NCBI RefSeq assembly: GCF_024172085.1
Contig: NZ_JAMZDZ010000001.1
Coordinates: 124,001-188,000 of the forward strand
DNA: 64,000 nucleotides
Direction of reading: 5' to 3'
Source: Hamadaea flava
Lineage (GTDB): Bacteria > Actinomycetota > Actinomycetes > Mycobacteriales > Micromonosporaceae
The translations under genes and the position numbers were made by a program. This document shows positions 19,465-30,257 of the stretch, one piece after another. A model generated the notes under the pieces. It had not been told where the DNA came from, ran no database searches, and saw only the letters and a list, made by a program, of their open reading frames with translations. Each line of letters begins with the position of its first letter. The stretch's first letter is position 1.

Positions 19465-19815
19465 ATGTCGACGGTGATCTACTCTTCGGGCGTGGCTGAA
19501 CTCCTCCGCTTCGAATCCGACTTCGGCACTGTGTACGTCGAAGAGCGCGACGACAGCGGGCTGGAGCGCGTCGGCGTGTTCAGCCGCGCCAAGCCCGCCA
19601 AGGAGAAGCTCGAGGTCGCCCTGGCCCAAGTCCGGCCGGCCTTCCAAGCCGCGATCACGGCCCTGTCCGACCTTCCGGTCGCACCGGACGAGTTCGAGAT
19701 CGAGGTCGGCCTGACACTGACCGCCGAGGCCGGTGCGCTCATCGCGCGTACCGCCGCGGAGGGACATCTGGTCGTGCGGGCGGTGTGGCGTAACCCGGTG
19801 GCGGGACGGGAGTGA
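19465..19815 (+). CDS. Trypco1 (CU044_2847-family) conflict-system protein
   Basis: 116 residues. The body AELLRFESDFGTVYVEERDD, KEKLEVALAQVRPAFQAAIT, DEFEIEVGLTLTAEAGALIA and GHLVVRAVWRNP follows the CU044_2847/Trypco1 family, a small beta-rich domain found next to trypsin-like proteases in actinobacterial NTP-dependent conflict systems. ATG 19465 is taken; GTG 19492 is a shorter alternative with no better ribosome site. The stop overlaps the GTG of the protease gene by 4 nt, so the two are co-translated. Its molecular role is not established. Confidence 0.8.
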   Translation: MSTVIYSSGVAELLRFESDFGTVYVEERDDSGLERVGVFSRAKPAKEKLEVALAQVRPAFQAAITALSDLPVAPDEFEIEVGLTLTAEAGALIARTAAEGHLVVRAVWRNPVAGRE

Positions 19816-20732
19816 CCGGGCAGCCCACGCTGGCCGGCCGGGTCCGGGTGCTGGCAGGTGACCCGGAGCGGATCGTGGGCGCGGGGGTCGCGTTGTCCGC
19901 GCGCCGCGTCCTGACCTGCTGGCACGTGGTCTCCGACGAACCGGCCGACGCCCTGGCCGTCGCCGAGCCGTCCGGCGTGCCCATCGAAGCGGACGTGACC
20001 TGGTCGGCCCCGATCGGCCCGCACGGCGAAGGAGACCTGGCGGTGCTGACCACCCGCGCGCCGCTGACCGGGCCGCCCGCCCGCCTGGCCGACTGCGGCG
20101 ACGCCGAATTCGACGTACGCGTCATCGGCAACCCCGCCCAGTCCCCGGCGCAGATCCTGGCCCGGGCGCGGCTGGTCGGCCCGGCCGACCCGGTCACCGG
20201 CTGGCGGCAGCTGGACCGGCTGTCCACCGCGACCGTCGCCGTCGACCGCGGCTTCAGCGGAGCGGGCGTGTTCGACCCGGACGGCCGCGTCGTCGGCCTC
20301 ACCGTCGCACGTTCGCAACTCGGCCAGCAGACCGTGGGCTGGATGATCCCAGTGGCCGCCTGGCGCCGCCTGCTCCCCGCCGACCTCGCCCCAGCGGTGA
20401 CCGCCGCGCCCCGGACCGAGCCACTGAGCCCCACCGAACGCAGTACGCTCGCCCGCGCCCTCGCCACCGTCCCCACCATGCTCGACCCGTTGGCGCGAGC
20501 CGAGCTGATCGCCGCACTGCCCGACGCCATCCGGCTCCGCGTACGCGTGACGCATCGCCTGCTCCTCGACTGCCGCGAACTGATCACCACCACACTCGAC
20601 ACGGACGGCGGATTCCCGGCCCTCTATGGGCGACTGTCCGAGCGGGAGGATCCCGATAGCATCTCTTTGCGGGAGTTCCGTGCACTCGCGGCGTCGATGC
20701 GGCTCCTGCCGGCACCGGACGAAGAGGACTGA
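19812..20732 (+). CDS. Trypsin-like serine protease with C-terminal effector-associated (death-like) region
   Basis: 306 residues. The chymotrypsin-fold catalytic triad is complete: H38 (VLTCWHVV), D75 (GEGDLAVL), S149 (DRGFSGAGVFD). No signal peptide precedes it, so it acts in the cytoplasm. Residues about 200-306 (TERSTLARALATVPTMLDPL, AELIAALPDAIRLRVRVTHR, then GGFPALYGRLSEREDPDSIS) form an all-helical region with the look of the EAD adaptors that link proteases and other effectors to NB-ARC proteins. The next gene begins 2 nt downstream and has a similar helical region at its N-terminus, so the protease is probably recruited and activated by that protein. Confidence 0.87.
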   Translation: MTGQPTLAGRVRVLAGDPERIVGAGVALSARRVLTCWHVVSDEPADALAVAEPSGVPIEADVTWSAPIGPHGEGDLAVLTTRAPLTGPPARLADCGDAEFDVRVIGNPAQSPAQILARARLVGPADPVTGWRQLDRLSTATVAVDRGFSGAGVFDPDGRVVGLTVARSQLGQQTVGWMIPVAAWRRLLPADLAPAVTAAPRTEPLSPTERSTLARALATVPTMLDPLARAELIAALPDAIRLRVRVTHRLLLDCRELITTTLDTDGGFPALYGRLSEREDPDSISLREFRALAASMRLLPAPDEED

Positions 20733-20734
20733 TC

Positions 20735-23700
20735 ATGCCCCGCCTGTTGCTTCAGCAAGCCACCGAACTGCGGGACGTGCTCCTGTCGGTGGGAGTGCTG
20801 AAGAACGCGGACGAACGTCAGTTGTGCCTCGACGCCGTCCACACCGAACTCGGTCGGCAGATCGTCAGTGACAACCGGAAGACCACGGCGCACAAGACCG
20901 ATCTGATGGTCATCGTCCAGGCACTGTCGGCCGAGCCCGAAGGCCTGCCCACGTTGCTGCGTGCGGCGGAGGCGTTCGGCGAGCCGGGTGACGTCGTGCC
21001 CGCGTGGCGTGTTCTCGCCCGCCTGGACCTGGCGGACCTGCTCGACGGGGTTCGGCCCGATGTCGTCGCGGAGGTCGCCGGTCAGGTGATGGACGCCCGG
21101 GTGGACGTCGACAAGCCGGATGTCGTCCTCCAGCAGGTCGGTTGGCAGCGAGCCGAGGCTTGGGGCGCGTCCGCGATGATCGCCTTCGTGGTCCTGCTGC
21201 TGGAGCGGCTGTCGGGGGAGGCGGGCGGTGCCGGGGCGAATCCGGCCAGTGGTGCGGTCTCCGGTCGGGAAGGCAACACTGCCAGGATCGAGACCTGGCT
21301 CACCGGCGGACGGTATGCTTTTGGGTTGACCGGTGCTGACCTGGACAACGCTCGCCGTGTGGCGCGATTGATCAGTGCGGCCGCGGGACCCGGCTCGAAC
21401 ACAGGTTTGCCGGCGCATGAGGAAGGTCCCGACGTGGGTACCACGACGATCATCAAGGTCACCGACTCGGGGACCGCGCAACCGCCTGCCCTGGTCTGGG
21501 GCGGTGTACCGGCCCGCAATCAGTACTTCGTGGGCCGCCGCGAAAGCCTGACCACTCTCGACGCCGCACTGACCCAGCAGGCTCGGGCGTCGGTCCTGCC
21601 GAAGGCCAGCGTGCGCGGCGCCGGCGGGGTGGGCAAGACCCAGCTCGCCGTCGAGTACACCTACCTGAACCAGAGCCGGTACCAGATCATCTGGTGGATC
21701 AACGCGGAGAACATCGCGACCGTCCGCGCGTCGCTGTCCGCCCTGGCCGACCGCGTCAACATTCCGCCGAATCCCAGCATGGAGCAGCGAATCCGCGCCC
21801 TGCTGGATCACCTGGCGACGACGTCACAGGACTGGCTGCTGGTCTACGACAACGCGACCGATCCGGCCGAACTGGCCCCGCTCATGCCGACCGCGAACGT
21901 CGTCGGCGAACTCGGGCACGTGATCGTGACCACGCGCAACACCGCGTGGGCGGCCGAGGGCGCCACCCTGGAGCTGGACGTCTTCAGCCGGTCGGAATCC
22001 CTGGAACTGCTCCAGGCGCGGGTGCCCGACACCACCGACCGCGAGGCTCACGACCTGGCCGAGAAGCTGGACGACCTGCCGCTGGCTTTGGAACAGGCTG
22101 CGAGTTGGCTGCTGACCATGCCGTCCTCCGTGGACGAGTACCTGCAGGATCTGGAGAGCCGGGCGACGACGTTGCTCGCCGAGGGCCGGCCCCGCGAGTA
22201 CAACGGGACGGTGCTGACCGTCGTCTCGCTGGCGTTGCCGCAGCTGGCCGAGCGGTCGGCCGCTGCCGTCCAGCTGCTCGAACTGCTGGTGCACCTCGCT
22301 CCGGAGCCGATCTCGACACGGCTGCTCTGGGAGGGCCGGCGCGCCGCCGGCCTACCCGAACCGTTGCGGTCGGTGCTCCAGGAGCGCAACGACATCTCCC
22401 GGACCGTGCGGCATCTGGGTTCGCTGGGGCTGGCGCGGATCGACAACGCGAACAAGCGGGTGCAGATCCACCGGCTGGTGCACCTGGTCGTCCGGGAGGG
22501 GCTGACCAGCGCCGAACCGCTGCTGAACGCCCAGCGGCTGCTGTCGGCGGCCAACCCCGGTTTCCCCGACGACCGCGGCACCTGGCCCCGGCATTCGGAA
22601 ATCGCCCCGCATCTGCAGGCCGCACACATGAACGACGGCGATGTGGACGCTCGCCGGACGGTGTTGGACCAGGTGCGGTACCTCTACAACACGGGCGACT
22701 ACGAGAGCTGCCGAGTACTCGTCGAGGAGGCGCTCGCCGCCTGGGACGTGCCCGACACGGACGGTCGCCCCAGCTCCGACGCGCTGACCCTGCTGGCGCT
22801 GCGCCGCTACGGCGACGCGTTGCGGCAGCTGAACGATCAGCAGGCAGCCACCGTCACGCTGGCGGCGTACGAGCGAATGGTCGAGGCGCTCGGCGAGGAG
22901 CACGAGTACACCATGGGCGCGGCGAACAGCGTCGGCGCCGACATGCGCCGGGCGGGCCGCGTGACCGAGGCGCGGGAACTGGACGCCCGCACCCTGGAAA
23001 CGCAGCGACGGGTCCTCGGCGACGCCGACCCCAGCACGCTGCGCATCATGAACTCGCTCGCGATGGATCTGCGGCTGACCGGCGACTTCGCCGCCTCGTA
23101 CGCGCTGAACGTCGAGGTCGAGGAGCACGCCCGCACTCTGGAGGACGGGGCGATCCCGATCGTCCTCGCCCAGGAGGCCCAGGCCCGCGACCTCTACCTC
23201 CTCGGCCGGTACGCCGACGCCGCCGCACTGCTGGAGGGCTCGCTTCCGATCCAGCGCAACCTGCTCGGGGCCGACCACCTCACCGTGCTCCGCGCGACCT
23301 GTGTCTACGTGGCGAGCCTGCGCAAACTCGGCCGGCTCGACGAGGCGGTGGCCGAGGGCCGGGCCAACCATCTGCTCGCCACCCGCCGGTTCGGGCCCGA
23401 TCATCTGATGACCGCCGAGTGCGGGATGACGGCGGCCAACGCGTTGCGGGCGCGTGGCGACGCCAGGGACGCCCACACCTACGCCATGCGCAGCCTGCAG
23501 CTGTTCCGCGGGATCTACGGCGAGGACCACCCGCTGGTGTGGTGCGCGTCGGTCAACGTCGCGGCCATCCTGCGTGCTCGCGACCTCGACCAGGACGCGG
23601 AGGAGCTGAACCTGCGCACCCTCGACGGTCTGCGGCGCACGCTCCCAGGCGAGCACCCGTACCTGCTCAGCGCGCGTACCGGGGTGGTCATGAACCTCGT

Positions 23701-23977
23701 CCGCGCCCATCGGATCGCCGAGGCCCAGCCGCTGTCCGCGGAGATCCTCGCCGACTCGCAGCGGGTGCGCGGCCCCGAACACGCCTACACGTACTACTGC
23801 ATGGTCAACGCCGCGGTGGACCAGATCCAGAGCGGACAGACTGAGACCGGCCTCCCGCTGCTCGCCGAGGCCACCCGGCTGCTGATCGAGAAGTTCGGCG
23901 CCGACCACCCCGAGGTCGAGGCGGCCCGCAACCGCCGCCGCATCGAGTGCGACATCGAGACGATCAGCCTGATCTGA
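20735..23977 (+). CDS. NB-ARC (STAND) ATPase with N-terminal effector-associated domain and C-terminal TPRs, FxsT-like
   Basis: 1080 residues. About 1-90 is a helical adaptor (QATELRDVLLSVGVLKNADE, LPTLLRAAEAFGEPGDVVPA) akin to the C-terminus of the upstream protease. NB-ARC at about 265-560: lead-in ARNQYFVGRRESLTTLD, P-loop G295-T302 (GAGGVGKT), WWINAENIATVRASL, Walker B 366-373 (DWLLVYDN), VIVTTRNTAWA, and LDDLPLALEQAASWLL (the GLPL position). Residues about 630-1070 are tandem TPR units. The VGRRExL lead-in and WWI-x-AE strand match proteins NCBI names FxSxx-COOH system TPR proteins. It is expected to sense a ligand through the TPRs, oligomerise on nucleotide exchange and activate the protease. 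Frame intact. Confidence 0.88.
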   Translation: MPRLLLQQATELRDVLLSVGVLKNADERQLCLDAVHTELGRQIVSDNRKTTAHKTDLMVIVQALSAEPEGLPTLLRAAEAFGEPGDVVPAWRVLARLDLADLLDGVRPDVVAEVAGQVMDARVDVDKPDVVLQQVGWQRAEAWGASAMIAFVVLLLERLSGEAGGAGANPASGAVSGREGNTARIETWLTGGRYAFGLTGADLDNARRVARLISAAAGPGSNTGLPAHEEGPDVGTTTIIKVTDSGTAQPPALVWGGVPARNQYFVGRRESLTTLDAALTQQARASVLPKASVRGAGGVGKTQLAVEYTYLNQSRYQIIWWINAENIATVRASLSALADRVNIPPNPSMEQRIRALLDHLATTSQDWLLVYDNATDPAELAPLMPTANVVGELGHVIVTTRNTAWAAEGATLELDVFSRSESLELLQARVPDTTDREAHDLAEKLDDLPLALEQAASWLLTMPSSVDEYLQDLESRATTLLAEGRPREYNGTVLTVVSLALPQLAERSAAAVQLLELLVHLAPEPISTRLLWEGRRAAGLPEPLRSVLQERNDISRTVRHLGSLGLARIDNANKRVQIHRLVHLVVREGLTSAEPLLNAQRLLSAANPGFPDDRGTWPRHSEIAPHLQAAHMNDGDVDARRTVLDQVRYLYNTGDYESCRVLVEEALAAWDVPDTDGRPSSDALTLLALRRYGDALRQLNDQQAATVTLAAYERMVEALGEEHEYTMGAANSVGADMRRAGRVTEARELDARTLETQRRVLGDADPSTLRIMNSLAMDLRLTGDFAASYALNVEVEEHARTLEDGAIPIVLAQEAQARDLYLLGRYADAAALLEGSLPIQRNLLGADHLTVLRATCVYVASLRKLGRLDEAVAEGRANHLLATRRFGPDHLMTAECGMTAANALRARGDARDAHTYAMRSLQLFRGIYGEDHPLVWCASVNVAAILRARDLDQDAEELNLRTLDGLRRTLPGEHPYLLSARTGVVMNLVRAHRIAEAQPLSAEILADSQRVRGPEHAYTYYCMVNAAVDQIQSGQTETGLPLLAEATRLLIEKFGADHPEVEAARNRRRIECDIETISLI

Positions 23978-23979
23978 GG

Positions 23980-25017
23980 TCAGCTCGATGCGAAGTCACG
24001 CGCCGCGAGCGTCGCGCACAACAACAGGCCCGCGTCGGTCAGGCTCGCGGCCCGGTCCAGCTCCGCGAAAGCCTGGTCCAGCTGTCCGCGTACCTCGGCC
24101 AGGCGCGCCTCGGCTCGCTCTGCCAGCTCATCTTGTACGCGGAAAGCAGCCCACAGGTCTGCCACGGCGGTGAAGGCGTACGCCCCGTGCAGCAGACCCG
24201 TGATCGGCCGGGGATCGGCGCGCCACGGCGACCGGTACCAACCCCGGTCGGCCGGGTCGAACAGGTCGGCCAGATGCATGACCACGCTGAGCTTGCTGTG
24301 CTGGAACTCGTGGACCATCGCGACGGCCAACTCGACCGCGCCAAGCCCAGGCTCGCTGGCGAACGCGCCGAACGCGTCGGAGTGCGTGACACTGTGATTG
24401 CCCGCCCCAGCGTCGCCCAGCGGGACGAACGTCGTCAACCCGAATGCCAGCTCGTCGGCGTACGCCGGAGCAAGGTCCGCCAGCAGCCGCCATGCAGAGT
24501 CGAATGTGGACTTTGCGGCGGCGTGCCCTGCGTCGGTCAGCCGACCGGCCAACTGCAGGCCATAGCAGTCCCGCATCGGATCGGCATCGTCCACCGTCAA
24601 GTGCAGACTGCGCCCGTTACGCCGAAGGCTGTAGCGGGTCAACGTCGGCCAGTCGTCCACCGCGCCGGAATCCATTCCCGCGCGATTCGCGGCTCGCCGG
24701 GCGATCGCATCCAGATAGCCGACGGACGCCGACGCCACACCCCGCGTACGCTGCGTCGCCCAAACGCCGAGCCACGGCAGCCGCAACACCTCGCGCACAG
24801 CGCCCGGATCCACCTCGTACGCCCGCCCGATCATTGTCGCAGCGGGCACCAGATCCGCATCGGTGGCGACGAGATGGCGGATCAGCAGCAGCGTCCGGGT
24901 CAGTTGAACATCCCGCAGCTTCTCGATCTGCTCCCGGTCGGCAGCCCCCCGAGCCAGCCCCCGTAACTCGCCGGCGGTCAGTCCGAGACGGGGCGCGTCT
25001 CGAGAAAGCTGTTCCAT
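23980..25017 (-). CDS. aKG-HExxH-type peptide beta-hydroxylase (stand-alone HEXXH protein)
   Basis: 345 residues. The diagnostic stretch is VAMVHEFQHSKLSVVMHLAD with H236-E237-x-x-H240 binding iron, followed by YRSPWRADPRPITGLLHGAY and AFTAVADLW, the conserved block of the family NCBI calls aKG-HExxH peptide beta-hydroxylase (known from FxSxx/FxsB-type RiPP loci, where it is often fused to a radical SAM enzyme). Here it stands alone and no radical SAM gene is in the window. ATG 25017 lies inside the 65-codon peptide gene, with GGAGAGG 11 nt upstream, so the two are co-translated and the peptide is the obvious candidate substrate. The gene ends 2 nt from the stop of the convergent NB-ARC gene. 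Confidence 0.82.
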   Translation of the reverse strand: MEQLSRDAPRLGLTAGELRGLARGAADREQIEKLRDVQLTRTLLLIRHLVATDADLVPAATMIGRAYEVDPGAVREVLRLPWLGVWATQRTRGVASASVGYLDAIARRAANRAGMDSGAVDDWPTLTRYSLRRNGRSLHLTVDDADPMRDCYGLQLAGRLTDAGHAAAKSTFDSAWRLLADLAPAYADELAFGLTTFVPLGDAGAGNHSVTHSDAFGAFASEPGLGAVELAVAMVHEFQHSKLSVVMHLADLFDPADRGWYRSPWRADPRPITGLLHGAYAFTAVADLWAAFRVQDELAERAEARLAEVRGQLDQAFAELDRAASLTDAGLLLCATLAARDFASS

Positions 25018-25175
25018 CCCGCGAGCGTCCTCTCCGGATGCGAATGCACCAGCGCGACCAGGTCCGCGACGGCCGCCGTCAGCGCTGGATCATCGCCGAG
25101 CAGCAGCCGGTTCAGGCGATCGCCGGAGATGTCGGGCAGCGGCGCCCGGCTCGGCAGGGGTCTTTCGTCATCCAT
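24978..25175 (-). CDS. Putative RiPP precursor peptide, variant of the FxSxx-COOH (FxsA) type
   Basis: 65 residues from ATG 25175. The leader-like part APLPDISGDRLNRLLLGDDP and ALTAAVADLVALVHSHPE resembles FxSxx-COOH peptides (LPDLxGxxLxxL, then DDPxL, then a short helix); the end AGWNSFLETRPVSD has W-N-S-F-L where FxSxx peptides have F-x-S-x-x, with seven extra residues. Usually the FxSxx motif is the very C-terminus, so this is an altered form. The last 40 nt are shared, in another frame, with the start of the aKG-HExxH gene; the conserved-looking WNSFL region is thus doubly coding. Candidate hydroxylation sites (Asn, Asp, Phe, Trp) are inference. It could instead be an unrelated small partner protein. 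Confidence 0.6.
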   Translation of the reverse strand: MDDERPLPSRAPLPDISGDRLNRLLLGDDPALTAAVADLVALVHSHPERTLAGWNSFLETRPVSD

Positions 25176-25303: not shown

Positions 25304-26659
25304 TCAGCATCTGCGGTGGAGGGTGTTGCGGACTGCTCGTCGTTGTGGGTCGACGAAGGTCGGTGGGAGGAATTCGGGGAAGCCGTCTGGTCTGATGCGG
25401 ACTTCCCAGTGCCCGTGGTGGATTTCGCGATGGTGGAACCCGCAGAGTAGGACGCTGTTGGTGAGGCAGGTGTCGCCGCCGTCTGCCCATGATCGGATGT
25501 GGTGGCCGTGGCACCACTGGGGTGGCCGGTCGCAGCCGGGGAACGCGCAGCCCTTGTCCCGCAACACCAGCGCACGCCGGAGCGGTCCGTCGATAAGCCT
25601 GCGGGCGCGGCCGACGTCGAGGACTTGGCCGTCGCCGCCGAGCACGGCCGGGATGATCATCGCGTCGCACGCGAGTCGTCGCACGGTTTCCGGGGTGAGT
25701 AGGTCGCCGGTGTCGAGCAAGCCTGCGCCGACTTTGGCTTGGAGGGCGTCCCAGGGCAGGGTGATCGTCAGGTGTGGTTTCTCGCCGCCGTTGTCGGGCA
25801 GCTCACCGGCATTCATGATCCGCTGGCACACCTCGACCAGCGCATCGGCTCGTCGAGCGCCGGCCGAGCGCAGATCCGGTTCACCTGGCAGCACCCGGGC
25901 CGCACCGCGACCGCCATCTGCCGCATCAGCGCCACGTCCCGCGCCCGCGCTGTCGACGGGCGCAGCCGCAGCTGTCGGTGCGGGCTTGCGTGGCCCGGAC
26001 AGCGGGTCCAATGCGGTCCGCACGATCGCGGCCATCTCCGTATCCAGGATGCCGCGGATCCGGTATTCGCCTTCGCCGTAGGGGATGAGGGTGAAGTCGC
26101 GCCGGTCGTTGGCGGAGCGTTCGGCGCGTTCCAGGTCGCGGCGCAGGCGTTCCTCGGCGATCTCGGGCGCGACCAGTTCCAGGATCTGCGACCGGTGGTT
26201 CTCCAGGGTCTCCGGCCGCAGTCGGTCGTCGGCAGCAAGCTTCGTCAACACGTCAGCGGCTTTCGCCTTACCCGCATCGCCGACGGCCGACGGCAGGGCG
26301 TGCACCGTTTTGGCGATCACGCGCGCCTGGTCGACGGTGACCCGCCCCGCAACGAGGGCTTCCTCGACCACCGGCGTCTCAGGCAACAGCTTGGCCAGCT
26401 TCGTCCAACCGACAGCATCCTTGTGCCGCATGGCCAGGAGGTAGGTCAGCCAGTTCGCGGTGCCGGTCGCACCGGCGTTGTGGGGGATCTCGCGACTGTC
26501 GGCGGTGCCGATCAACGCCAGGAACCGGCCCGACAGGGCTTGGATCGCGACGTGGACTCGGCGGACCTCGTCGGTGATCTCGGCGTCCGAAAGTGCCCAC
26601 AGGGGACCAGCCGCCAGCTCGGCGACATCCGCCTCCACCTGCGCCAACACCCCGCCCAT
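25304..26659 (-). CDS. DUF222 (13E12 repeat-type) protein with C-terminal HNH endonuclease domain
   Basis: 451 residues. The N-terminal three-quarters is a DUF222 domain (AIQALSGRFLALIGTADSRE, ATGTANWLTYLLAMRHKDAV, VTVDQARVIAKTVHALPSAV). The C-terminus carries an HNH nuclease with its zinc cysteines: CAFPGCDRPPQWCHGHHIRS, then NSVLLCGFHHREIH, the two CxxC/H pairs framing the catalytic His. A Pro/Ala-rich insert sits mid-protein. Such genes occur in many copies in actinomycetes (REP13E12 in mycobacteria) and spread with mobile DNA, but no flanking repeat or integrase is visible. Cellular role unknown. Confidence 0.93.
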   Translation of the reverse strand: MGGVLAQVEADVAELAAGPLWALSDAEITDEVRRVHVAIQALSGRFLALIGTADSREIPHNAGATGTANWLTYLLAMRHKDAVGWTKLAKLLPETPVVEEALVAGRVTVDQARVIAKTVHALPSAVGDAGKAKAADVLTKLAADDRLRPETLENHRSQILELVAPEIAEERLRRDLERAERSANDRRDFTLIPYGEGEYRIRGILDTEMAAIVRTALDPLSGPRKPAPTAAAAPVDSAGAGRGADAADGGRGAARVLPGEPDLRSAGARRADALVEVCQRIMNAGELPDNGGEKPHLTITLPWDALQAKVGAGLLDTGDLLTPETVRRLACDAMIIPAVLGGDGQVLDVGRARRLIDGPLRRALVLRDKGCAFPGCDRPPQWCHGHHIRSWADGGDTCLTNSVLLCGFHHREIHHGHWEVRIRPDGFPEFLPPTFVDPQRRAVRNTLHRRC

Positions 26660-26984
26660 GGATCAACATTAGAACGAAGGTACGACACCTTCCAGGGGGT
26701 CAAGGTCACGAGAATGTGCCACGATCCAACCACCCGAACGTCCACAAGCGACACGCGCCGCAATGCGCCCTACAGATGCGATTTCGGGTCCGATTCCGTG
26801 AGCATGCGCCAGCGCGAAACGGCCGCTGACCGCACACCATCGGCGCATGATCTTGCGAACCGGCTAGAAGTCGCGCACCAAAGGGCGCATAACGCGCAGG
26901 CGCGCCCTAGTGGGCGCACACGCAGAAGGCGCGGGCGCACATGCAGAAGGGCACGGGCGCAGAACGCTCGGGCCGTCAACAAGC
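26660..26984. other. Non-coding stretch with GGGCGCA-led repeats
   Basis: 325 nt without a credible gene. It contains the upstream region of the HNH gene and, at 26912-26932, 26933-26954 and 26955-26963, a degenerate tandem unit beginning GGGCGCA and containing GCAGAAGG; a further GGGCGCA occurs at 26884-26890. The base composition at 26680-26900 is less GC-rich than the genes around it. No hairpin or RNA gene is recognised. Confidence 0.5.
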
Positions 26985-27911
26985 TCAGGAAGTCGTGGGA
27001 ATCCGCTCGTGGCGTTCGATCAGGAGCCGGATGCCGTCTGGTTCGAGGGCGAGCAGGCTCGGCACGATCTCGCCGGCGGCGTATGGGGAGTCGAGGACGG
27101 CGTGCTGCAGGAAGTCCACCCAACCGGAGTCCTGCCTGGTCACGAGGAGGGTGTCGGGGTCGGGGAGGGCTACGAGCAGTTGGTCGCCGCCGAGTGAGCG
27201 GCTCATCTGTTCGTGGAAGTCGGGCAGGGCCAGTGCGGATGAGGCGAACGAGCCTTCGCGGCGCAGGGTCAGGAACAGGCCGCGCTCGGGGCGGTCGCGG
27301 TCTTCGCCGACGTCGACGCGCAGGCCCGCGACGAGTGCGCCGTACGCCGTCGCGAGCACTTCTTCGAAGGGCTGCGTACCGAGTTTGGCGTGGGTCAGGT
27401 GGTTCATGCCGATGCGGCCTTGCGGGGTGAGGGCGACTGCGGCGACGGTCACGTGCAGGCGACCTGGGACGACGTCGCGATGGGGGAGGTGCTGGAGGAG
27501 GTCGATCGTGGGCGACGACCAGCTCCACAGGACGGGGAGGAGTTGGCCGTTCTCGGCGACGTGTTCCATGTTGTCCACGGCCTGTGCCGCCGCGTGCTGG
27601 CGTTCTGCCTGCTCCATGGTCTGCCGGACGTCGGCGTACGCCGCCTCCCAGCCGCCGGGTCCGGGCCGGTCGAAGCTGTAGGTGACCGCCGCCCGGGGGA
27701 AGGTGCGCCCGATGAACTCCTCGTCCACCGCCGACGGCTGCCACTCCGAGTAGATGCGGCTGACCTCGGCCGCGGCCCGGCGCTCGACCGGAACCGCGAA
27801 CCAGGCCTGCTGTACGCAGTCGTCGGCCTGGGTCGGCCCGCTCGAGATGAACGGCTCGGGGTAGCCGGGGATCTCGAAGACCACCATGTTGGTCGTGGGG
27901 TCGGTGTTCAC
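26985..27911 (-). CDS. Hypothetical protein, weakly DUF1444/YtpQ-like
   Basis: 308 residues from GTG 27911, which follows a strong AAGGAGG; an upstream in-frame start has no such site. The middle and C-terminus (IGMNHLTHAKLGTQPFEEVL, SSALALPDFHEQMSRSLGGD, LLVALPDPDTLLVTRQDSGW) follow the order of YtpQ/DUF1444 proteins: a helix pair, a strand with LxLPxF, then LGGDxLVAxPxxDxLLV. I treat this as tentative. It is soluble with no signal peptide. Confidence 0.75.
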   Translation of the reverse strand: MNTDPTTNMVVFEIPGYPEPFISSGPTQADDCVQQAWFAVPVERRAAAEVSRIYSEWQPSAVDEEFIGRTFPRAAVTYSFDRPGPGGWEAAYADVRQTMEQAERQHAAAQAVDNMEHVAENGQLLPVLWSWSSPTIDLLQHLPHRDVVPGRLHVTVAAVALTPQGRIGMNHLTHAKLGTQPFEEVLATAYGALVAGLRVDVGEDRDRPERGLFLTLRREGSFASSALALPDFHEQMSRSLGGDQLLVALPDPDTLLVTRQDSGWVDFLQHAVLDSPYAAGEIVPSLLALEPDGIRLLIERHERIPTTS

Positions 27912-28002
27912 GCGTCCTCCTTGGGCAAGCGCGTCCTCCCAATGACGCAAGATCGTCAGGGACGGTACCACTGTCCGGCAAGACCGCACGCGGGCGGACT
28001 GA

Positions 28003-28743
28003 TCACAGTAGACGGTTGCGGCCCCAGCCTCGGGCCATCCGCCACGCGGCGAACGCGCCGAGCACGGCGGCTACGGCGAGCAGCACTCCCGCGTCGCGGA
28101 GGGTCGCGGTTGCGTCGCCGGTCAGGGCGGCGGTCAGCGCGTGCAGCGCCCAGTATCCCGGCGACGCGGGGGCGGCGGCCCGCAGCCACGTCGGCATCAG
28201 CGCCAGCGGCACCATCGCGCCGCCGAGCACGGTGAAGAACATCCCGCCGAGGTCGTTCACCGCGCTCAGCTCGCTCTGGCTGCGTACCACTGTGGCAAGC
28301 GCGGCCCCCGCGCACAGCAAGGTCACCGCCCAGCTCACGCCCGCGACCAGCAGGAGGTCTGGTCGCGGCACGCGCAGCCCCAAGAAGATCATCGAGTACG
28401 CGATGAGGGCGGCCTGTTGCGCGAGTAACACGGTGCCGAGCGGAACGGCCTTGCCGACCAGGATCTGTGCGGGGCGGGCGGGGGTGGCGCGGAGCCGGTC
28501 GAGCGTGTGCCAGGAGCGTTCGGTGAGGATGCCCCCGGCGATGATGTTGAGGCCGAGCAGGGAGAACAGCACGAGCATGCCCGTGACCGCCTGGGTGAGC
28601 CCGGCGGACCCGAGGGCGGCCGCGTAGAGCGGGCGCAGTGCGGTGATCAGCACCAGCGGCATGCCGACGCGGCTGAGGGCCGGGCCGGGTTCGGCGCGCA
28701 GCAGAGCGAAGTTGTGCCGGATCAGGACGGTCGCGGCGCTCAT
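28003..28743 (-). CDS. ABC-2 type transporter permease
   Basis: 246 residues, six membrane helices. The cytoplasmic elbow (LTERSWHTLDRLRATPARPA) and QSELSAVNDLGGMFFTVLGG (conserved before membrane segment 5) identify the ABC2_membrane type. ATG 28743 overlaps the stop of the upstream ATPase gene by 4 nt. Together they form a two-component exporter controlled by the divergent TetR protein. Confidence 0.92.
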   Translation of the reverse strand: MSAATVLIRHNFALLRAEPGPALSRVGMPLVLITALRPLYAAALGSAGLTQAVTGMLVLFSLLGLNIIAGGILTERSWHTLDRLRATPARPAQILVGKAVPLGTVLLAQQAALIAYSMIFLGLRVPRPDLLLVAGVSWAVTLLCAGAALATVVRSQSELSAVNDLGGMFFTVLGGAMVPLALMPTWLRAAAPASPGYWALHALTAALTGDATATLRDAGVLLAVAAVLGAFAAWRMARGWGRNRLL

Positions 28744-29582
28744 CGGGTCACCGCCAGGCTGTGGTAGAGATCGTCGAGGGTGGCCGGGCGGATGTCCACT
28801 GCCGACGGCCGTACGCCCGCCGCGAGCAGCCGGGCCAGTTCGGCGGTCGGGTCGGGCGTGGTGATCTGGTCGACGCTGCCGTCGGGCCGGGTGATGTCGA
28901 GATGGCCGGGCAGTCCGGCCAGCAGGCTGTCCTGGTCGCCTCGGGCGATCACGCGACCGGCCGAGCACAGCGCGAGCGTCGCACCGAGGTCGACCAGTTC
29001 GGGCAGGTAGTGCGTGGTGTAGCAGACGGCGGTCCCGGTCGCCGCGACCTCTTTGATCAGGTCGAGCAAGGCGGCTCGCGTTTCGGGGTCGGCCCCGACG
29101 GTCGGTTCGTCGAGCAAGAGCAGCCGGGGGCGGTGGAGTAACGCGGTCGCGGCCTGGGCTCGGCGGCGCTGGCCACCCGACAGTAGCCCGACCGGCCGGT
29201 CCAGACAGTCGGTGAGCAGCAGGCGTTCGGCCGTCTGCGTGATCGCCGCGCGCAGGGATCGTCCGCGCAGCCCGGCGAGTCCGCCGAACAGGCGCAGGTT
29301 CTGCCGCAGGGTCGCCGGCAGGTAGAGCGCCAGCTCCTGCGGGGCCAGCCCGATGCGGTCGCGAGCCTGAGCGGGTGTCCGGCCGTCGACGGTGACCACG
29401 CCCGCGTCGGGCCGGATGAGTCCGGTGACGATCTCGACGAAGGTCGTCTTGCCGGCGCCGTTGTGGCCGATCAGCCCGCAGATCTCGCCGGGTGCGATCG
29501 AGAGGGTGAAGCCGTCGAGGGCGCGTCGGTCGCCGTACCGCTTGATCAGGTCTTCCGCCGAGAGCATCGCCGGGGAGTGCAT
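28740..29582 (-). CDS. ABC transporter ATP-binding protein
   Basis: 280 residues from ATG 29582, which has AAGGAGG at the right distance. Walker A GLIGHNGAGKTTFVE, Q loop IGLAPQELALYLPATLRQNL, signature PVGLLSGGQRRRAQAATALL, Walker B RLLLLDEPTVGADPETRAAL, H loop VCYTTHYLPELVDLG. The family is the multidrug/antibiotic DrrA-like group. The upstream region contains an inverted-repeat operator shared with the TetR gene, so the exporter is likely induced by its own substrate. Confidence 0.95.
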   Translation of the reverse strand: MHSPAMLSAEDLIKRYGDRRALDGFTLSIAPGEICGLIGHNGAGKTTFVEIVTGLIRPDAGVVTVDGRTPAQARDRIGLAPQELALYLPATLRQNLRLFGGLAGLRGRSLRAAITQTAERLLLTDCLDRPVGLLSGGQRRRAQAATALLHRPRLLLLDEPTVGADPETRAALLDLIKEVAATGTAVCYTTHYLPELVDLGATLALCSAGRVIARGDQDSLLAGLPGHLDITRPDGSVDQITTPDPTAELARLLAAGVRPSAVDIRPATLDDLYHSLAVTR

Positions 29583-29602
29583 CGGAGCGCCTCCTTTGTG
29601 AT

Positions 29603-29628
29603 CTACGTTGTATAGATCTACACTGTAG
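29603..29628. promoter_or_regulatory. Imperfect palindrome, probable TetR operator with overlapping -10 elements
   Basis: CTACGTTGTA (29603-29612), 6-nt centre TAGATC, TACACTGTAG (29619-29628): 8 of 10 positions pair. It lies between the exporter ATPase start (29582) and the TetR start (29631). TATAGA at 29611-29616 reads as a rightward -10 element and TATACA on the opposite strand as a leftward one, so repressor binding would block both promoters. Confidence 0.75.
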
Positions 29629-29630
29629 AG

Positions 29631-30257
29631 GTGCCTGACGACGATCGCAAGCGACGGATTCTGGACGCCGCGCTGGAGCTGGCCGACGAGCGCGGCCTGG
29701 CCGGTGTGACCATGCGCGCCCTGGCGCAGAAACTCGGGGTCACCGCGATGGCGCTCTATCCGCACATCGGGGACAAGGAGGGCCTGTTCGACGGGCTGGT
29801 CGATCGGATGCTCGCCGAGATGCTGCCCGCCGTGCCCACCGACGGCACCGCCGAGGAGCGGCTGCTGGCCGTCGGGCGGGCCGCGCGTGAGCTGTCCCGG
29901 CGGCACCCCTCGGCGTACGCGTTGCTGCTGGCCCGTCCGGCGGTCACGCCCGACGCCGTGCGCCTGGTCGACGCGATCTACGGCGCACTGCTGGATCTGG
30001 GCGTACCGGATGCTGAGGTGCCGCGCGTCGAACGGCTCATCACGACCTTCGCCCTCGGGTACGCCGCCAGCGAGGCCAGCGGCCGGTTCTCGGCGGGCAC
30101 GATCAATCCTCGGGGGAGGCGGGCGCAGTTCCCGGCCGACGAGGTGTCCGCCCATCGGCGGCTGAGCGAGGTGCTCGATCGGATGCCGGACTGGGACGCC
30201 GAATACGAGGCCGATCTGCAGGACCTGCTGCTGATGGTGCGAGCGCGCTGGTCCTGA
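29631..30257 (+). CDS. TetR-family regulator of the adjacent ABC exporter
   Basis: 208 residues from GTG 29631. HTH at 8-55: KRRILDAALELADERGLAGV, RALAQKLGVTAMALYPHIGD (TetR class with the LYxHxxxK motif). The C-terminal domain (RAARELSRRHPSAYALLLAR, then FALGYAASEASGRF) is the TetR_C tetracycline-repressor-like ligand part. The GTG is about 8 nt from the predicted transcription start, so the message is nearly leaderless. It most likely represses itself and the exporter through the palindrome at 29603-29628. Confidence 0.92.
   Translation: MPDDDRKRRILDAALELADERGLAGVTMRALAQKLGVTAMALYPHIGDKEGLFDGLVDRMLAEMLPAVPTDGTAEERLLAVGRAARELSRRHPSAYALLLARPAVTPDAVRLVDAIYGALLDLGVPDAEVPRVERLITTFALGYAASEASGRFSAGTINPRGRRAQFPADEVSAHRRLSEVLDRMPDWDAEYEADLQDLLLMVRARWS

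What the first reader, a model, noticed from the sequence alone, without database searches (positions are those of the whole stretch)
19465..25175. Candidate protease/NB-ARC conflict island joined to a one-enzyme peptide-modification module
Seen: Trypco1, trypsin-like protease with intact H38/D75/S149 and a helical C-terminus, NB-ARC/TPR protein with a similar helical N-terminus, then convergently an aKG-HExxH hydroxylase overlapping a 65-codon peptide gene. Known: FxSxx-COOH loci pair a small peptide, a radical SAM enzyme (often fused to the HExxH domain) and an NB-ARC/TPR protein (FxsT). Inference: this is a reduced variant in which hydroxylation alone modifies the peptide, and the modified peptide, or its loss, may be what the TPRs sense to unleash the cytoplasmic protease.
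Basis: partly seen in the sequence, partly recalled or inferred. Interest (0 to 1): 0.85.

Follow-up and report, generated by a model that had tools for sequence, protein, structure and literature searches.

The report
Protease island with one-enzyme peptide partner
An actinomycete bacterium carries a compact five-gene set in which a cell-death-like protease and the ATPase switch that probably recruits it sit beside a tiny peptide and the single enzyme predicted to modify it, a trimmed-down relative of a known but poorly understood family of defence-like systems.

Summary
Trypco1, trypsin-EAD2 (intact triad) and EAD2-NB-ARC-TPR (FxsT) face a stand-alone aKG-HExxH enzyme overlapping a 65-codon peptide. 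Both helical regions are EAD2, a predicted adaptor. The peptide is a divergent FxSxx relative: Trp for Phe plus seven extra residues (GWNSFL-ETRPVSD). Of 354 family genomes, 16 carry this peptide type: 15 of 16 beside HExxH, 0 of 16 beside radical SAM FxsB. The window's FxsT clade occurs in 13 genomes, each time beside the peptide. HExxH nests among radical-SAM-bearing FxSxx loci. Effectors vary: trypsin-EAD2, caspase-EAD2, TIR. In one orthologous locus HExxH is gone, the protease triad is destroyed and the motif's Asn is lost, linking enzyme to protease. FxsB exists elsewhere in the genome, so hydroxylation alone is likely, not shown; ABC transporter genes flank the peptide in Hamadaea only. 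TPR sensing is inference. PMC7159879 covers EAD-protease-NTPase systems and radical-SAM-less HExxH/peptide pairs of other types. A new variant of a known kind.

The parts
19465..19815 (+). Trypco1 (trypsin-co-occurring domain 1) protein, 116 aa; overlaps the protease start by 4 bases
   Evidence: PF19493 E 3.2e-20; 93% identical to G080
19812..20732 (+). Trypsin-like protease with C-terminal EAD2, 306 aa; triad His38/Asp75/Ser149; no signal peptide evident by eye
   Evidence: PF13365 1.7e-17 and PF19956 9.9e-8; in the 11-row alignment the triad is kept in every row that has the column: His 10 of 10, Asp 11 of 11, Ser 11 of 11 (L168 was not in it)
20454..20693 (+). EAD2 adaptor domain of the protease (residues 215-294)
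   Evidence: PF19956 32.6 bits, cut-off 23.8
20735..23977 (+). FxsT: EAD2-NB-ARC-TPR STAND NTPase, 1080 aa; Walker A GAGGVGKT
   Evidence: NF040586 705.9 bits, NB-ARC, TPR_12, EAD2; motif; AF2 model pLDDT 82.2, pTM 0.55
20774..20983 (+). EAD2 adaptor domain of FxsT (residues 14-83)
   Evidence: PF19956 29.3 bits, cut-off 23.8
23980..25017 (-). Stand-alone aKG-HExxH peptide beta-hydroxylase, 345 aa, convergent with FxsT (2 bp gap)
   Evidence: TIGR04267 147.8 bits; AF2 model pLDDT 92.7 matches SjiH-Ni 22ob (TM 0.86) and ChlH 8s5f (TM 0.72)
24298..24312 (-). HEFQH metal-binding motif (residues 236-240)
   Evidence: H236, E237, H240 invariant in 40 of 40 aligned enzymes
24978..25175 (-). 65-residue precursor peptide ending TLAGWNSFLETRPVSD
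   Evidence: TIGR04268 22.2 bits, below cut-off 28; conservation
25002..25019 (-). GWNSFL motif (residues 53-58); the hydroxylase ATG (25017) is nested in it in the +1 frame

Best explanation
A stand-alone, radical-SAM-less offshoot of the FxSxx peptide systems, wired as an apoptosome-like switch. FxsT (EAD2-NB-ARC-TPR) is the switch. The trypsin-EAD2 protease is its swappable effector, recruited by EAD2-EAD2 contact, with Trypco1 as the protease's partner. The small peptide is modified in the cytoplasm by the HExxH oxygenase, most likely beta-hydroxylation in GWNSFL, the invariant Asn being the best candidate. The peptide then acts inside the cell as the ligand whose state the TPR solenoid of FxsT reads, holding the protease off or releasing it. 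Shown: the genes, domains and intact catalytic motifs; recurrence of the set; nesting of the HExxH gene among radical-SAM-bearing loci; purifying selection on the peptide motif. Inferred: hydroxylation and its site, EAD2 pairing, TPR-peptide binding, intracellular action and the direction of control.
For: (1) Family assignments. (2) Whole family, 354 genomes: 16 carry the peptide at E < 1e-20 (8 of these peptides built the model), with HExxH adjacent in 15 of 16 and no radical SAM gene in the stretch read for any of the 16. The window's FxsT clade (>700 bits; next match 583) is in 13 genomes, each time beside the peptide. All 9 trypsins matching at 38% identity or more over nearly the full length lie in such loci. 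(3) EAD2 on both NTPase and effector, with the effector varying: trypsin-EAD2 in Hamadaea, Micromonospora and a third genus; caspase-EAD2 with an a/b-hydrolase in Catellatospora sichuanensis, in a divergent gene order; TIR in H. tsunoensis. (4) The window genome has only three EAD2 domains; two are in this operon. (5) Radical-SAM-less W group: SH-aLRT 86 for 16 rows; UFBoot/SH-aLRT 94/91 for 10 rows, 66/84 with L057. The FxsT tree groups its GWNSFL loci (8 rows, 100*). (6) L168 and L078 share three flanking genes (56-73%). L168 has lost HExxH, its protease triad (His to Gln, Ser to Gly) and the Asn of the motif (GWGNFV), while FxsT keeps Walker A. (7) FxsT model hits: a STAND-TPR protein, kinesin light chain TPR with peptides, APPBP2 with a C-degron, the apoptosome.
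Against: No biochemistry. FxsB exists in trans in 13 of 14 genomes tested. G254 keeps the peptide and HExxH with FxsT cut to 353 aa and no protease; G246 has no FxsT on its 17 kb contig, so the pair can persist without the switch. Trypco1 was not detected in L078 or L168. L056 and L057 FxsTs do not join the window's FxsT clade, so the W-peptide/HExxH pair goes with more than one FxsT; the FxsT EAD2 of L056 scores 23.0 bits, just under Pfam's 23.8, though 68 with my own model. Of 12 trypsin matches, three lie outside the nine: G019 (L168), G062 (inside a VMAP protein beside a radical SAM FxSxx locus) and G129 (no EAD2, no peptide nearby). L168 is one event, its losses may be mere decay, and G019 has two HExxH genes elsewhere. 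In Hamadaea an ABC transporter operon lies upstream of the peptide on its strand, which would fit export. Whole-chain TM of the FxsT model's 50 listed matches is 0.13-0.37. ChlBH is reported to need a preinstalled cyclophane (PMC12636437 passages).
Confidence: 0.5

Rival explanations
1. Full FxSxx chemistry in trans: FxsB from the genome's other FxSxx locus first crosslinks Trp and Ser of WNS into a cyclophane, then the local HExxH hydroxylates it.
For: FxsB over its cut-off elsewhere in 13 of 14 genomes tested; W-type peptides with radical SAM exist (L068, L098, L102, L103, L106); ChlBH hydroxylation depends on a cyclophane (PMC12636437 passages).
Against: G198 has the full cassette and no FxsB over the cut-off (350-contig draft). 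The three FxsBs of such genomes whose loci I read (G000, G080, G128) sit with their own peptides and FxsT. 0 of 16 W-peptide loci keep a radical SAM gene in the stretch read. Other HExxH enzymes, PflC and PosC, fully modify their peptides in vitro with Fe(II), ascorbate and oxoglutarate (passages).
Confidence: 0.25
2. Model of Kaur et al. for related loci: HExxH is a metallopeptidase that releases a C-terminal peptide, which is a toxin or signal (possibly exported) amplifying the response.
For: Stated for related loci in PMC7159879 section 24. PflC also shows proteolysis without leader and oxidative backbone cleavage. In the window an ABC-2 permease (28003-28968) and an ABC ATPase (28740-30155) lie upstream on the peptide's strand; in G080 the same genes follow the peptide directly.
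Against: The fold is that of ChlH, deposited as an oxoglutarate-dependent oxygenase, and SjiH. The transporter genes have no match at E 1e-3 in the stretches read for the 14 other genomes with this peptide type. The core is not evidently membrane-active (by eye).
Confidence: 0.15
3. The trypsin-like protease is the leader peptidase of the peptide rather than an effector.
For: Same locus; arginines flank the core (by eye).
Against: Caspase-EAD2 or TIR stands in its place in two loci, it is dead in L168, and it is missing in G254 and not seen in G246 while the peptide persists. It carries EAD2, an adaptor.
Confidence: 0.07
4. Two unrelated modules that happen to be neighbours.
For: The peptide/HExxH pair occurs without an intact switch in G254 and, on its contig, G246.
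Against: 13 of 13 FxsT-clade loci carry the peptide, across four genera; C. sichuanensis keeps an association of the same kind in a different gene order.
Confidence: 0.03

Closest known systems
FxSxx-COOH systems (NCBIfam TIGR04268 peptide, TIGR04269 FxsB, TIGR04267 HExxH, NF040586 FxsT)
   Same: FxsT over cut-off, HExxH over cut-off, peptide along the whole profile, HExxH convergent with FxsT as in the genome's own full locus
   Different: No radical SAM gene in the locus; peptide below cut-off, Trp for Phe, motif not at the C-terminus; adds an EAD2 protease with Trypco1
EAD-coupled NTP-dependent conflict systems, including VMAP ternary systems with peptide processing (Kaur et al. 2020, PMC7159879; section 24 and search passages read)
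   Same: Trypco1-trypsin and EAD2 pairing, AP-ATPase-TPR, zincin-like enzyme with small peptide; pairs without radical SAM are described there for RxD and acidic peptides
   Different: No VMAP, vWA or MoxR match among the nine proteins scanned here; FxSxx-type peptide without radical SAM, where that paper says a radical SAM gene is present; HExxH lies in another part of the tree than the RxD-type enzymes
STAND NTPase with EAD8 and neighbouring EAD8-trypsin (PMC10907252, search passages)
   Same: Adaptor shared by NTPase and protease
   Different: Different adaptor and sensor; no peptide module in the passages seen
ChlBH, SjiH and PflC/PosC aKG-HExxH enzymes
   Same: Fold and motif for ChlH and SjiH
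   Different: ChlBH is fused to radical SAM and PflC works with an MNIO fusion; not tied to a STAND NTPase in what I saw

Membership tests
FxSxx-COOH system | Precursor scores over TIGR04268 | tested here: not met
   22.2 bits against 28; the genome's canonical FxsA also falls short, 18.4
FxSxx-COOH system | F-x-S-x-x at the C-terminus | tested here: not met
   W-N-S-F-L plus seven residues
FxSxx-COOH system | Radical SAM FxsB in the locus | tested here: not met
   None in the window; the only over-cut-off FxsB is about 7.7 Mb away in contig coordinates
FxSxx-COOH system | FxsT (NF040586) | tested here: met
   705.9 bits, cut-off 300
aKG-HExxH peptide beta-hydroxylase (TIGR04267) | Profile, HExxH motif and fold | tested here: met
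   147.8 bits; motif; 22ob and 8s5f
aKG-HExxH peptide beta-hydroxylase (TIGR04267) | Oxoglutarate-dependent hydroxylation of the peptide | not testable with these tools
   Needs enzymology
EAD-coupled conflict system | Same EAD on NTPase and effector | tested here: met
   EAD2 over cut-off in both
VMAP ternary system | VMAP, vWA and MoxR proteins | tested here: not met
   No such Pfam match in the nine proteins scanned between 15956 and 26659
Trypsin-like protease, active | His-Asp-Ser triad | tested here: met
   Present and conserved; activity itself not testable
Anti-phage defence system | Protection against phage, or match to a known system | tested here: inconclusive
   PADLOC: only weak protease-domain hits among five proteins; no phage assay possible

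The most novel reading that the evidence does not exclude
A bacterial apoptosome gated by an oxygenase. The cell continuously makes and Asn-hydroxylates the GWNSFL peptide, and the hydroxylated peptide sits in the FxsT TPR groove as a keep-off signal. When translation, oxygen, iron or oxoglutarate fails, or an invader removes peptide or enzyme, the signal is lost, FxsT assembles and the EAD2-tethered protease (trypsin or caspase) kills the cell. This logic resembles oxygen-dependent Asn hydroxylation in animals (recalled). L168 fits: the one locus lacking the hydroxylase and the motif Asn has a dead protease.
Probability: 0.13. Interest if true: 0.92.

Novelty: new variant of a known kind. Interest (0 to 1): 0.62.

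Why it matters
What FxSxx peptides and their FxsT partners do is not stated beyond prediction in the papers I could see. This cassette keeps peptide, modifier, NTPase switch and effector in five genes and about 5.7 kb, with one modifying enzyme and a protease whose activity can be measured. It makes the central question, whether the modified peptide controls the NTPase and its effector, testable in one plasmid. The natural locus without HExxH but with a dead protease gives a sharp prediction. If the hydroxylase works on the linear peptide, it also offers a stand-alone peptide oxygenase that bypasses radical SAM chemistry.

Tried and rejected
Chance neighbours: rejected by recurrence. Motif conservation as a by-product of the overlapping hydroxylase start: rejected, because variation falls only on third positions of the peptide frame and residues 1-8 of the hydroxylase are of very low confidence in the model. 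Phage or plasmid origin: no phage record matches and 4 plasmid records match distantly, none covering 80%. PADLOC naming gave nothing useful. Solved relatives of the protease by sequence: none at 0.001. Export operon: ABC transporter genes beside the peptide in the window and G080 have no match in the other stretches read, so I give it little weight. Papers: 'FxSxx' is held by 3 papers, only PMC7159879 relevant; searches for SjiH, ChlBH and FxsBH gave only PMC12636437 as relevant; I did not search for the GWNSFL string itself in papers. The Nature Chemistry 2024 ChlBH paper is not held, so its content is second-hand from PMC12636437. My automatic peptide labels are crude: L068 was labelled RxD although its peptide is AGWQSYVG..., the peptides of L062, L075 and L079 were not typed well, and the radical SAM gene counted for L157 may belong to a neighbouring system. 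Rows identical in sequence were dropped before the count. L086 carries a broken reading frame in protease and FxsT in that draft; described only. The NB-ARC Pfam match is weak or below cut-off in some FxsT relatives.
Full report
What is there. The five genes exist as described. Trypco1 (19465-19815) overlaps the protease (19812-20732) by four bases, and the NTPase follows two bases later (20735-23977): an operon-like row of three genes. Converging on it, two bases apart, is the HExxH gene (23980-25017), preceded by the 65-codon peptide (24978-25175). Pfam and NCBIfam confirm the assignments, the peptide only below its cut-off. The helical regions at the protease C-terminus and the NTPase N-terminus are both EAD2, an effector-associated domain predicted to pair with itself (PMC7159879, passages). 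The genome holds three EAD2 domains: these two and one on the FxsT of its other FxSxx locus.

The peptide is a gene and a distinct type. It aligns to the whole TIGR04268 model but below the cut-off (22.2 against 28). Its FxSxx slot reads WNSFL and is followed by seven residues. Relatives in Hamadaea, Micromonospora and a third genus read GWNSFL plus a short tail; the four of them that I scanned (one from its second residue) give no TIGR04268 match. The hydroxylase start codon (ATG at 25017) lies inside the motif in the +1 frame, so the motif could be a by-product of the overlap. The evidence is against that: in 13 distinct sequences the 18 motif bases vary at four columns, all third positions of the peptide frame, which are first positions of the hydroxylase frame. 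The hydroxylase residues coded there are of very low confidence in the model.

Co-occurrence. HExxH relatives were sought in 300 genomes of the family, the protease in 300, FxsT in 354 and the peptide in 354 (400 were asked for and 354 searched). Sixteen genomes carry the peptide with E below 1e-20; 8 of the 16 peptides built the model, and 14 further genomes have only weak matches (E 1e-9 to 1e-4, most with stops inside), among them L057 and L068. HExxH is adjacent in 15 of 16; the exception is G019. A radical SAM FxsB lies in the stretch read of 0 of 16 (stretches of 5.1 to 20.1 kb, some ended by the contig; G300 and G325 were equated with loci L088 and L086 by coordinates). FxsT of the window clade is present in 13 of 16 (in G325 its frame is broken), and those are all 13 genomes with a match over 700 bits; the next match has 583. 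Effectors: trypsin-EAD2 in 11 (broken frame in G325), catalytically dead trypsin-EAD2 in G019, caspase-EAD2 with an a/b-hydrolase in G128 (Catellatospora sichuanensis), TIR in G061 (Hamadaea tsunoensis), none in G254 (FxsT cut to 353 aa) and none seen in G246 (no FxsT on a 17 kb contig). The whole five-gene set with Trypco1 is in 10 of 16; Trypco1 was not detected in G145 or G019. In C. sichuanensis the two halves are divergent instead of convergent, with another FxsT whose EAD2 falls just under Pfam's cut-off (23.0 against 23.8; 68 bits with my model). Of the 12 trypsin matches, nine lie in HExxH/GWNSFL loci and one in the HExxH-less G019; the other two are a VMAP-fused protease beside a radical SAM FxSxx locus (G062) and a protease without EAD2 or peptide nearby (G129).

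Flanks. In the window a DUF222/HNH gene (25304-26659), an unassigned protein (26985-27989), an ABC-2 permease (28003-28968) and an ABC ATPase (28740-30155) follow on the peptide's strand. In G080 the last three (84-90% identical) stand directly beside the peptide and the DUF222 gene is absent. None of these flanking proteins has a match at E 1e-3 in the stretches read for the 14 other genomes with this peptide type. Export is thus possible in Hamadaea but not a shared trait.

Descent. The genome's other FxSxx locus (L014) has peptide, FxsB, HExxH and a convergent EAD2-bearing FxsT. The window has the same layout minus FxsB. In a tree of 108 HExxH sequences the radical-SAM-less W-peptide loci form one group (16 rows, SH-aLRT 86), next to L068 and L098, which have W peptides and radical SAM (83, drawn open), inside a starred group of 44 whose other 28 rows have radical SAM. 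A careful tree of 41 rows gives 94/91 for ten of them and 66/84 when the long-branched L057 is added. Roots are not inferred, so 'loss of radical SAM' rests on nesting. The RxD-type pairs without radical SAM, a type named by Kaur et al. (section 24), fall in another part of the tree. The FxsT tree groups its eight GWNSFL loci (100*), while L056 and L057 fall outside that clade. L098 combines a W peptide and radical SAM with trypsin-EAD2, VMAP-EAD2 and an AAA protein, so a VMAP ternary ancestry is possible.

The enzyme. The model (pLDDT 92.7) matches SjiH-Ni (22ob, TM 0.86) and ChlH (8s5f, TM 0.72), the latter deposited as an oxoglutarate-dependent oxygenase. H236, E237, H240, W265, R266, P269 and R270 are invariant in 40 of 40 relatives. 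Passages of PMC12636437 report that ChlBH hydroxylates Asp and His in a preformed cyclophane, while PflC and PosC hydroxylate Gln (and Asn in a PosA variant) and cleave backbone. The invariant Asn of GWNSFL is my candidate site; this is inference.

A natural experiment. G019 (L168) and G145 (L078) share three flanking genes at 56-73% identity, so their loci correspond. L078 has peptide, HExxH, FxsT and an intact trypsin-EAD2. In L168 the peptide lies 30 bp from FxsT with no HExxH between or in the 19.9 kb read. The protease keeps EAD2 but has Gln for His and Gly for Ser of the triad, and the motif reads GWGNFV. FxsT is full length with Walker A. Enzyme, protease activity and the Asn were lost together. 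That fits a hydroxylated peptide that matters only when the protease is live. It is one event; plain decay also explains it, and G019 has two other HExxH genes.

How it most likely works. FxsT is a STAND switch; its model (pLDDT 82.2, pTM 0.55) matches a STAND-TPR protein and the apoptosome, and its TPR part matches kinesin light chain with cargo peptides and APPBP2 with a C-terminal degron (whole-chain TM 0.13-0.37 over the 50 listed). Kinesin light chain TPRs read short Trp- or Tyr-acidic peptides (search listing with starts of abstracts), a suggestive parallel to a Trp motif followed in most relatives by an acidic residue. I take the peptide to be an intracellular ligand of FxsT, the HExxH enzyme to set its state, and the EAD2 protease to be the output. 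Direction (keep-off or trigger) is open. The asymmetry that the peptide/HExxH pair persists without the switch in 2 of 16 genomes, while the FxsT clade never lacks the peptide (13 of 13), leans to keep-off, weakly.

Limits. FxsB in trans is present in 13 of 14 genomes tested (G300, G325 and G019 were not tested), so a crosslink before hydroxylation is not excluded; G198 is the one exception and a draft. No activity was measured.

Known or new. Published: Trypco1-trypsin, EAD pairing, AP-ATPase-TPR, HExxH/peptide pairs, and their types without radical SAM, RxD and acidic (PMC7159879; I read section 24 and search passages, not its supplements). Not found in my searches among held papers: an FxSxx-type pair without radical SAM, stand-alone from VMAP, with swappable EAD2 proteases. 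Hence a new variant of a known kind.

Noticed in passing
L014 7485-10778 (G000:C1, about 7.87 Mb): The canonical FxsT of the same genome has an EAD2 but no EAD2 effector of its own; the window's protease is the only other EAD2 protein besides the window's FxsT, so cross-recruitment is possible.
   Followed up: partly
L168 9308-13608: Locus without HExxH and with a dead EAD2 protease but intact FxsT and a GWGNFV peptide; flanks match L078.
   Followed up: yes
window 25304-30155; L045 10468-13594: ABC permease and ATPase with an unassigned protein stand beside the peptide in G080; in the window a DUF222/HNH gene separates them, probably an insertion.
   Followed up: partly
L055 and L072; L139: Peptides ending in AGFNSAL or AGFNSSI beside HExxH with no radical SAM gene detected in the roughly 20 kb stretch: further FxSxx-type loci lacking radical SAM, outside the W group.
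   Followed up: no
[quoted passage not shown]
   Followed up: no
L058 7067-8662: TIR_2 protein and a small membrane-like protein in place of the protease in Hamadaea tsunoensis.
   Followed up: partly
L098 3690-9018: VMAP-type locus with trypsin-EAD2, W-type peptide, radical SAM and HExxH: a possible intermediate.
   Followed up: partly
window 25002-25019: The Trp codon of the motif, with the base before it, supplies the start codon of the hydroxylase, so the Phe-to-Trp change may be tied to translational coupling.
   Followed up: partly
L052 (Micromonospora foliorum PSH25): Peptide and HExxH intact beside a 353 aa FxsT remnant, protease genes gone.
   Followed up: partly
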